This document shows, piece after piece, positions 20,750 through 22,609 of a stretch of 64,000 bases of DNA. The stretch spans positions 124,001 through 188,000 of the forward strand of contig PNAG01000017.1 of assembly GCA_003169845.1 (NCBI GenBank), in the 5' to 3' direction. The notes beneath the pieces were generated by a model. That model was given only the letters and a program-made list of their open reading frames with translations. It made no database searches and was not told the DNA's origin. The translations under genes and the position numbers were made by a program. Positions within the stretch are counted from its first letter, which is position 1. Every line of letters starts with the position of its first letter. This DNA is from Candidatus Dormiibacterota bacterium (GTDB lineage Bacteria > Chloroflexota > Dormibacteria > Dormibacterales > Dormibacteraceae).

Positions 20750-21403
20750 GTGTCCGAGCATGGCGACTTTACCCGGCGCCGGTGCCAACAATGGCAGCGT
20801 ATGACGCTGCCATTTTGCCGGGATGCGGCAGAGGTCGTCTTCGCGCTGGCAGCAGCCGCGGAGGCGAAGGATGCATTCACCGAGAACCACCCTCAGCGGG
20901 TGGCGAATACCGCCCGCCTGATCGGCACGCGACTAGGACTTCAGGAATCGGATCTGGTCGCCTTGTTTCGCGGCGCCCTGGTCCACGACATCGGCAAGAT
21001 GGGGGTGCCCGCCGCAATCCTTCTCAAGCCCGGACCGCTGAACGCCGAAGAAGAAAGGCAGATGCGTGCGCACCCGGTCATTGGCGAAAGGATCGTTAGG
21101 TCACTCCCCTCGACGGCGGACATCTTGACCATCGTCCGCCACCACCATGAGCGGTTCGACGGCGGTGGTTACCCGGACGGTCTTGCCGGCCACAAGATTC
21201 CTCTCCTGGCGCGGATAGTGTCGGTCTGCGACGCGTATGACGCGCTCGCGAGCGAGCGGCCCTACCGGGCTCGGCGCAATTCAGAGGAAGCGATCGAGAC
21301 TTTGATGCGAGGTGCAGGCCAGCAGTGGGATCGTGAGCTTGTCTCGATCCTGCTGTCCGAGCTACCTGCAATGCGTTTCGAGGTCGCCAGCTTGACCTGG
21401 TAA
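20750..21403 (+). CDS. HD-GYP domain phosphohydrolase
   Basis: 217 residues from GTG 20750; ATG 20801 is an alternative giving 200. The HD-GYP fold covers almost the whole protein: HPQRVANTARLIG, metal-binding HDIGKMGVP (about residue 82), HPVIGERIV, then HHHERFDGGGYPDGLAG with the GYP triad, and DAYDALASERPYR. In this family the usual role is hydrolysis of cyclic di-GMP; the complete HD and GYP residues support an active enzyme. No sensory or receiver domain is attached, so input must come from elsewhere. It follows glgB by 65 bases, and a short GGACAC/GTGTCC inverted pair (20720-20725, 20750-20755) spans the start region. Confidence 0.85.
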   Translation: MSEHGDFTRRRCQQWQRMTLPFCRDAAEVVFALAAAAEAKDAFTENHPQRVANTARLIGTRLGLQESDLVALFRGALVHDIGKMGVPAAILLKPGPLNAEEERQMRAHPVIGERIVRSLPSTADILTIVRHHHERFDGGGYPDGLAGHKIPLLARIVSVCDAYDALASERPYRARRNSEEAIETLMRGAGQQWDRELVSILLSELPAMRFEVASLTW

Positions 21404-21418
21404 TGAGCGTATAACCGC

Positions 21419-21424
21419 TAAATT
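21419..21424 (+). promoter_or_regulatory. -10 element TAAATT, leaderless start at 21431
   Basis: TAAATT is followed by exactly 6 bases and then the GTG at 21431, the geometry also seen at 10018 and 52158. It supports GTG 21431 as a real gene start, although the frame hits TGA 13 codons later. Confidence 0.5.
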
Positions 21425-21430
21425 GTCCGC

Positions 21431-21829
21431 GTGACCGAGCCCGACCTGGTCCTCCTTTTCGACGGGACTTGAGGCGTTTGAAGCAGGATGGCGCGCTGGG
21501 TTCGCCGGCGCGATCGGGCCGGCCGTGTGCTGCCAATCGCAAATCAAAAAAGAGGCGTGCTCGCTCGATACGGAGTCACCCGCCAGGAGGCTGACCGCGC
21601 CGCATGGATCATCGACCTGGACGGGCGGCGGTTGGAGGGAGCCGCCGCCGCGAACCGGGTGATGAGCGAGATCGGAGGAGGCTGGGGTGTCGTGGCGCGA
21701 GCGTATGGCGTGCGACCGGTGGCGTTGGTCGAGGAGGCGGTCTATCGGTGGTTCGCGAGGAACCGCACCCGATTCCATCGCTTCGGCGTCCGGCCCGACT
21801 GTGAGGAAGCCGGCTCCGACTGCGAATAG
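21431..21829 (+). CDS. DCC-family thiol-disulfide oxidoreductase, predicted UxxU selenoprotein (two in-frame TGA codons)
   Basis: Reading from GTG 21431 with TGA as selenocysteine (U) gives a 132-residue protein: VTEPDLVLLFDGT-U-GV-U-SRMARWVRRRD, then ARYGVTRQEADRAAWIIDLDG and a C-terminus VYRWFARNRTRFHRFGV. This is the DCC/DUF393 thioredoxin-like family from end to end, at normal length. Its hallmark is FDGxCxxC; here the two Cys codons are TGA at 21470-21472 and 21479-21481 and everything around them is conserved. TGA is a normal stop elsewhere in this window (glgE, treS). A GC-rich stem-loop at 21487-21515 lies at SECIS distance from both. The alternatives are a pseudogene hit twice exactly at the catalytic codons, or an assembly error. 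The selenocysteine machinery is not in the window. Confidence 0.7.
21487..21515 (+). promoter_or_regulatory. Candidate bacterial SECIS stem-loop
   Basis: CGCGCTGG (21492-21499) pairs with CCGGCGCG (21505-21512; one G-U pair) around the loop GTTCG. GAT (21487-21489) and ATC (21513-21515) extend the stem below a two-G bulge. The loop begins with G and starts 18 bases after the second TGA and 27 after the first. Known bacterial SECIS elements lie immediately downstream of the UGA, with the apical loop roughly 16-37 bases away and a G at the loop's start. GC-rich coding DNA forms stems by chance, so this is supporting rather than decisive evidence. Confidence 0.5.
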
Positions 21830-21835
21830 TCTGGG

Positions 21836-22609
21836 CTAACTCGCCGGTGCCTTTGGCTGGTGCAGGGTCAGGCGGTAGCCCTTGCCTTTCTCGTTGATCA
21901 ATTCGCACACGCTCTTGAACGGCGCCAGCTTCTGACGCAGCCGCGCCACGTACGTCCGAAACTGTTCGATCGACGAATCCGGTCCCCAGGCCGGCAGCGC
22001 CACGTCCTCGGCGGCGAAGAGCTGATTCGGATTGGCCAGAAAGAACGAGAGCAGCTGCCACTCGCGCTTTGTCAACGACACGGCGGCCTCACCGTTCTTG
22101 ACCGTTCGTTGCCTGGCGTCGAAGACGAGGCCCCCCAGCTCGATCTTGGTCGCGATCGAAACGACAGAACCGACGTCTGGCCCGCGCAGCTCCGACTTGA
22201 TCGCCCCGATCAGAGCGTCCGGAACGAAAGGCTTCGGCAGGACCTGGCTCGCGCCCGCTTCGTAGGTTTCCAGCGTGTCGCCTGCATCGCCCGACGACTC
22301 GTCCAGCAGGATGAAAGGCGCCCCTGCCGCTATCCGGAGCTCGCCCAGCAGCTTGGGGCCCACGCGAGACTCGGCGCTCATGCCAAGGATGACGAGATCG
22401 AATCTCGTGGACCTCTCGAGCTGGCGCCTTGCTGCCTCGAAATCGGCCACGCTCTCAAATTCCCCGCCGGCCAGCTCGACCACGTGCGAGATCACAGAAC
22501 GGTAACCGGCGTTGGCCTCGACCACCAGGATGCGAGGCAGCCTGGGCCGTACCCGCGATCGAGGTTCGGTCTTGCTCTCTCCCATGGCGCCATCCCTCTG
22601 CAAGTTCAT
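21836..22609 (-). CDS. Atypical OmpR-type response regulator with degenerate receiver
   Basis: 257 residues. The N-terminal half has the receiver fold (PRILVVEANAGYRSVISHVV, DLVILGMSAE, LPKPFVPDALI). However, the acidic pair is reduced to EAN, and the phospho-acceptor position in DLVILGM is Gly instead of Asp, while the late Lys is kept. Conventional phosphorylation is therefore unlikely. Residues about 155-250 form a winged-helix Trans_reg_C domain (TKREWQLLSFFLANPNQLF, FRTYVARLRQKLAPF, INEKGKGYRLTL). The start at 22609 may be a few codons long: an internal ATG follows at MGESKTE. It sits next to a second winged-helix gene of similar C-terminal design, with no adjacent kinase. Confidence 0.8.
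   Translation of the reverse strand: MNLQRDGAMGESKTEPRSRVRPRLPRILVVEANAGYRSVISHVVELAGGEFESVADFEAARRQLERSTRFDLVILGMSAESRVGPKLLGELRIAAGAPFILLDESSGDAGDTLETYEAGASQVLPKPFVPDALIGAIKSELRGPDVGSVVSIATKIELGGLVFDARQRTVKNGEAAVSLTKREWQLLSFFLANPNQLFAAEDVALPAWGPDSSIEQFRTYVARLRQKLAPFKSVCELINEKGKGYRLTLHQPKAPAS

What the first reader, a model, noticed from the sequence alone, without database searches (positions are those of the whole stretch)
21431..21829. DCC-family redox protein with both CxxC cysteines encoded by TGA: predicted UxxU double selenoprotein
The frame from GTG 21431 reads VTEPDLVLLFDGT, TGA, GV, TGA, SRMARWVRRRD and continues in the same frame through a complete DCC (DUF393) domain of normal length. 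The family hallmark is FDGxCxxC, and the only two interruptions fall exactly on the two catalytic Cys positions, nine bases apart. Random decay would not choose those two codons and leave about 130 others intact. TGA is used as an ordinary stop by neighbours such as glgE and treS, so a reassigned code is unlikely. A leaderless-type -10 (TAAATT) six bases before the GTG and a stem-loop at SECIS distance add support. UxxU centres, which would form a diselenide, are rare.
Basis: partly seen in the sequence, partly recalled or inferred. Interest (0 to 1): 0.95.

Follow-up and report, generated by a model that had tools for sequence, protein, structure and literature searches.

The report
Double-selenium redox protein in soil bacteria
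A small redox protein of soil bacteria of the Dormibacter lineage carries the codon TGA at both of its two catalytic cysteine positions, and these are likely read as selenocysteine, which would make it a previously unlisted selenium enzyme family whose members switch between selenium and sulphur at each position.

Summary
The finding holds. Frame 21431-21829 encodes a DCC1-like thiol-disulfide oxidoreductase (PF04134) with in-frame TGA at exactly the two catalytic Cys codons (21470, 21479). The genome has tRNA-Sec (anticodon TCA), adjacent selA and selB, and a selD with its own in-frame TGA. Among 98 distinct DCC loci, 29 carry TGA: 17 UxxU, 8 CxxU, 4 UxxC. All 46 internal stops in those 29 are TGA at the two motif positions. 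Five more phylum genomes carry TGA-bearing members. A hairpin fitting the bacterial SECIS model opens 18 nt after the second TGA and 27 nt after the first; a comparable one occurs in 27 of 32 TGA loci and 8 of 69 Cys loci. Separate assemblies and purifying selection argue against error or decay. Of 120 database relatives listed, 118 start just after the motif. PF04134 is absent from the selenoprotein table of a 2026 review. Most likely this is a double selenoprotein with a predicted diselenide site served by one SECIS. Selenium insertion itself is not shown; substrate and partners are unknown.

The parts
21419..21424 (+). TAAATT, possible -10 of a leaderless transcript (weak)
   Evidence: Sequence; no promoter found by consensus scan; the in-frame stop TAA 21419-21421 overlaps it, so GTG 21431 is the only in-frame ATG/GTG/TTG before the motif
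21431..21829 (+). DCC-family thiol-disulfide oxidoreductase gene, start GTG, stop TAG
   Evidence: PF04134 67.6 bits; dN 0.126 and dS 0.554 against its same-genus relative
21470..21472 (+). TGA at catalytic position 1 (residue 14), predicted Sec
   Evidence: TGA or Cys codon at this place in all 98 classified loci
21479..21481 (+). TGA at catalytic position 2 (residue 17), predicted Sec
   Evidence: TGA or Cys codon at this place in all 98 classified loci
21490..21515 (+). Predicted bacterial SECIS hairpin: 8 continuous pairs 21492-21499 with 21505-21512, loop GTTCG 21500-21504
   Evidence: own sequence alone z -1.8, p 0.067 against synonymous recodings

Best explanation
The gene at 21431-21829 is a DCC-family thiol-disulfide oxidoreductase with TGA codons at both catalytic cysteine positions, which are likely read as selenocysteine (UxxU) with the help of one predicted SECIS hairpin just downstream that would serve both codons. 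Shown by sequence: the two TGAs at the motif, their exchange with Cys codons in relatives, the complete Sec machinery in the genome, and the hairpin. Inferred: SelB with Sec-tRNA binds the hairpin and decodes each TGA as it enters the ribosome; Sec14 attacks and Sec17 resolves at the start of helix 1 of a thioredoxin-like fold; oxidation gives a diselenide of low potential. Substrate and reductant are unknown.
For: PF04134 match. tRNA-Sec, selB, selA, selD in the genome, SelD itself with TGA in GAGUACK. 17 UxxU, 8 CxxU, 4 UxxC, 69 CxxC loci; 46 of 46 internal stops in the 29 TGA loci are TGA at the two positions. At least 3 changes at site 1 and 7 at site 2 on a tree of 61 rows built without those columns. 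Hairpin meeting the published bSECIS rule in 27 of 32 TGA loci against 8 of 69 Cys loci; mean folding z -1.88 (28 TGA loci), -0.08 (8 near Cys), -0.05 (61 far Cys). Purifying selection. TGA used as stop in the same genome and even in the same gene in L164 and L173. TGA-bearing members in five further genomes of the phylum, all five with tRNA-Sec.
Against: No direct evidence of selenium. 5 of 32 TGA loci fail the strict hairpin rule (L010, L176, L178, L021, L212), and L212 folds no better than chance. The window's own hairpin alone is marginal (p 0.067), and 13 of 28 TGA loci are not below p 0.05 individually. 4 of 25 genomes with a TGA-bearing DCC show no tRNA-Sec of 57 bits or more, though all four have selA. 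That one hairpin serves both codons is inferred. Fold support from solved structures is weak.
Confidence: 0.92

Rival explanations
1. The two TGAs are genuine but are decoded as cysteine by an unusual tRNA with a UCA anticodon, not as selenocysteine.
For: The exchange partner at both positions is Cys. UGA-reading Cys tRNAs exist in some bacteria (recalled, no call).
Against: The one UCA tRNA found is called tRNA-Sec by both Infernal and ARAGORN, with selA, selB and selD beside it in the genome. TGA ends other genes. A pattern scan for other UCA tRNAs gave 8 places, none called a UCA tRNA, but the scan was partial.
Confidence: 0.03
2. The double-Sec protein is a minor product: one SECIS decodes two UGAs poorly, and the main product starts at ATG 21488 without the active site, as databases annotate it.
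For: 118 of the 120 database relatives listed start at the Met just after the motif. Two close UGAs should compound termination (general knowledge).
Against: The residues before the TGAs (VLLFDGT) are conserved. In seven relatives the DCC start overlaps the stop of an upstream YndJ-like frame, which suggests initiation before the TGAs. The database starts are what gene callers give when TGA is a stop. A product without residues 1-19 would lack strand 1 and the motif of the model.
Confidence: 0.08
3. Pseudogene or sequencing error.
For: Two in-frame stops in one short gene.
Against: 17 genomes carry both TGAs at the same two codons and no other internal stop; dN well below dS; TGA never TAA or TAG at these codons.
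Confidence: 0.01

Closest known systems
DCC1-like thiol-disulfide oxidoreductases (PF04134, YuxK)
   Same: Full-length domain match and the two catalytic positions of the motif
   Different: Both catalytic Cys codons are TGA here; 69 of 98 classified loci are CxxC
UxxU selenoproteins listed in PMC13188914 Table 1 (Prx-like PF00578; metal-binding/putative mercuric reductase NF041115; FmdB family TIGR02605)
   Same: Two Sec predicted in a UxxU motif
   Different: Other protein families; PF04134 is not in that table
Selenoprotein thioredoxin and glutaredoxin (UxxC)
   Same: Works like: a redox pair at the start of helix 1 with Sec in place of Cys (table; model)
   Different: Single Sec; different families

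Membership tests
DCC1-like (PF04134) | Profile match over the curated cut-off | tested here: met
   67.6 bits, cut-off 27.8, with Cys put at the TGAs
DCC1-like (PF04134) | D..C..C motif | tested here: met
   D11, U14, U17 in register with Cys of relatives; met only if Sec counts as Cys
DCC1-like (PF04134) | Thioredoxin-like fold | tested here: inconclusive
Bacterial selenoprotein | In-frame UGA at a position that is Cys in homologues | tested here: met
Bacterial selenoprotein | selA, selB, selC, selD in the genome | tested here: met
Bacterial selenoprotein | bSECIS: loop 3-9 nt with G in first two, stem 4-16 bp, 16-37 nt from UGA, -7.5 kcal/mol or lower (rule quoted) | tested here: met
   8 bp, loop GUUCG, 18 nt from UGA 2 and 27 nt from UGA 1, -14.9 kcal/mol (row L170)
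Bacterial selenoprotein | Selenium in the protein | not testable with these tools
   Needs 75Se or mass spectrometry
Prx-like UxxU selenoprotein (PF00578) | AhpC-TSA domain | tested here: not met
   PF04134 was the only Pfam hit at E up to 1

The most novel reading that the evidence does not exclude
DCC proteins are a new, phylum-wide selenoprotein family in which nature has tried all four arrangements (UxxU, UxxC, CxxU, CxxC) around one fixed SECIS position, so that a single SECIS hairpin decodes two UGA codons nine bases apart, giving a diselenide oxidoreductase.
Probability: 0.75. Interest if true: 0.82.

Novelty: new variant of a known kind. Interest (0 to 1): 0.76.

Why it matters
If true, it adds a redox family (PF04134) to the selenoprotein inventory, in a soil lineage for which my two searches of the held papers returned no selenoprotein or selenocysteine work. 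Its natural series of U/C combinations at both positions of one active site, with a hairpin at the same place, makes two questions testable: what each Sec contributes to a redox centre, and whether one bacterial SECIS can serve two closely spaced UGA codons. It also exposes a systematic annotation error: 118 of the 120 database relatives listed start after the motif and so lack it.

Tried and rejected
Pseudogene, read error and a general code change were considered and rejected. A UGA-to-Cys tRNA was considered; a pattern scan of the own genome for other UCA tRNAs gave 8 places (4 for the reversed control), none of which ARAGORN called a UCA tRNA. That scan is partial: its spacing limit also misses the tRNA-Sec, so it had no positive control. 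Rfam on 21380-21880 gave nothing. A consensus promoter scan gave nothing, so the leaderless claim stays weak. NCBIfam gave one hit below its cut-off to an unrelated model. Neighbourhood revealed no partner: the window has an HD-domain gene before and a response regulator after; of the 28 stretches compared, 14 have a TMEM164-like frame and 7 a YndJ-like frame beside the gene. Solved-structure sequence search gave no credible relative (best E 0.015); Foldseek and VIA matches are weak. The loose hairpin test (any place 16-37 nt) was poorly discriminating for single sequences (4 of 28 TGA loci under p 0.05), so a fixed window with a synonymous null (15 of 28 under p 0.05) and a Sec/Cys contrast were used; the place and rule of the last were chosen after seeing the hairpins. 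Papers: no held paper had both terms of selenoprotein with DUF393, 'DCC family' or Dormibacter, or selenocysteine with 'DCC1-like', YuxK or Dormibacter; the library is open-licence PMC only. Of PMC13188914 I read section 7, parts 1 and 2 of 3, and passages; of PMC9312934 and PMC2398784 passages only; the other papers as listings only.

Rows dropped: hits starting after profile position 12 were skipped and identical stretches merged; the tree used the 61 rows scoring 66 or more, without L186; L186 (short) was left out of hairpin counts; L201 fell out and L202 out because my patterns missed them (folds). One search read minus-strand loci on the wrong strand and was redone.

Full report
Observation. 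The sequence is as described: GTG at 21431, TGA at 21470 and 21479, open frame to TAG at 21827-21829. With Cys at the TGAs the 132-residue product matches PF04134 at 67.6 bits over nearly the whole profile. The two TGAs are residues 14 and 17, in register with the two invariant Cys columns of the relatives.

Host. The window lies in an unnamed 3.69 Mb genome, 94% complete. The genome has a tRNA-Sec of 69.9 bits with anticodon TCA, selB and selA side by side on contig 5, and selD. SelD has an in-frame TGA in the context GAGUACK, so a second gene of the genome seems to need Sec. G001, the other same-genus genome, has selA but no DCC hit (85% complete).

Relatives. A search of 61 genomes found the protein in 31. 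A class search of 110 genomes had matches in 45. Over all loci then held, 98 distinct DCC stretches with the motif were classified: 17 UxxU, 8 CxxU, 4 UxxC and 69 CxxC. All 46 internal in-frame stops in the 29 TGA-bearing loci are TGA at the two motif positions; other stops occur only 88 or more codons further on, at the end of the gene. A tree of 61 of these rows, built without the two columns, needs at least three changes at site 1 and seven at site 2. Both UxxC pairs and one CxxC row (L177) lie with 13 UxxU rows in one branch (support 80/93, not starred). A 400-genome sample of the phylum had matches in 70 and added UxxU members in G293, G387, G397 and G195 and a UxxC member in G286; all five genomes have tRNA-Sec over the cut-off. 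The TGA of G325 is not at the motif, which reads CxxC there.

Machinery and trait. Counted by hand, 25 of the 61 genomes have a TGA-bearing DCC; 21 of these have a tRNA-Sec hit of 57 bits or more. The four without (G011, G016, G023, G032) are 84-87% complete and all have selA over its cut-off. Strong tRNA-Sec hits also occur where DCC is CxxC (G024, G005, G008), so the correlation alone is not the argument.

SECIS. After the second TGA comes CGCGCUGG-GUUCG-CCGGCGCG: 8 pairs, loop opening with G, 18 nt from the second TGA and 27 from the first. The published bacterial model asks for 16-37 nt, 4-16 pairs, a 3-9 nt loop and a G in its first two positions (PMC13188914, passage). In a fixed 30-nt window 28 TGA loci have mean folding z -1.88 against synonymous recodings, 8 near Cys loci -0.08 and 61 far Cys loci -0.05; 15 of the 28 are under p 0.05 singly. 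With a strict rule 27 of 32 TGA loci and 8 of 69 Cys loci have the hairpin (Fisher p 1e-12, not corrected for relatedness). One of the 8 is L177, the CxxC row among the UxxU rows, which looks like a recent change to Cys. The 8 CxxU loci use a shorter stem, GCGCUG-GGUC-CAGCGC, and the divergent UxxU members L210 and L211 other stems with a GGU loop; in all 27 the loop opens 16-18 nt after site 2. The window's own hairpin is marginal by itself (p 0.067). Since UxxC and CxxU relatives have a hairpin at the same place, one hairpin serving both codons is the simplest reading, but it is inferred.

Selection and code. Between the window and its same-genus relative dN is 0.126 and dS 0.554; in the 14 other pairs computed dN is also well below dS. 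TGA ends two of nine window frames checked; in L164 and L173 it both interrupts the motif and ends the same frame; in seven relatives the DCC start overlaps the TGA stop of an upstream YndJ-like frame.

Annotation. Of 396 database relatives found, 120 were listed. 115 of these begin at the helix just after the motif by my pattern; three more (P0072, P0089, P0116) were settled by eye, giving 118 of 120; the other two include the motif as CxxC. This is what gene callers give when TGA is read as stop, but I did not see the DNA of these entries.

Mechanism. The model (mean pLDDT 84.1) puts residue 14 just before helix 15-27, after strand 6-10, the usual place of a thioredoxin-type redox pair. I infer Sec14 as attacking and Sec17 as resolving residue, with a diselenide when oxidised. 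Structural matches are weak, and no neighbour points to a partner.

Known or new. Table 1 of PMC13188914, which the review says covers 119 families or subfamilies, has UxxU in three entries (PF00578, NF041115, TIGR02605) and no DCC entry or PF04134 (term searches). PMC2398784 also reports UxxU in a Prx-like family (passage). Text searches of the held papers for a DCC selenoprotein were empty. So the kind (UxxU selenoprotein) is known; this family and its four-way exchange appear unlisted within the open-licence library searched.

Noticed in passing
L007, L012, L164, L168, L177 upstream of the motif: No in-frame ATG, GTG or TTG lies between the preceding in-frame stop and the motif; where others start there is ATA or ATC, shortly after a TA-rich stretch. 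L021 has neither. Possible start at a rare codon, unexplained.
   Followed up: partly
L185 and L015 (both G007): One genome holds two DCC copies, one UxxU and one CxxC.
   Followed up: no
G000 contig 19, 33450-34361 (locus L049): SelD of the same genome has its own in-frame TGA in GAGUACK, so it is likely a selenoprotein too.
   Followed up: partly
L085, L087, L090, L091, L093, L095, L098: The DCC start overlaps the TGA stop of an upstream YndJ-like membrane protein frame, and a TMEM164-like frame follows in 14 of 28 stretches compared; the window lacks this arrangement.
   Followed up: partly
L210 (G397) and L211 (G195): Divergent UxxU DCC members with motif WDGAUGFU and WDGAUAFU in other families of the phylum.
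   Followed up: partly
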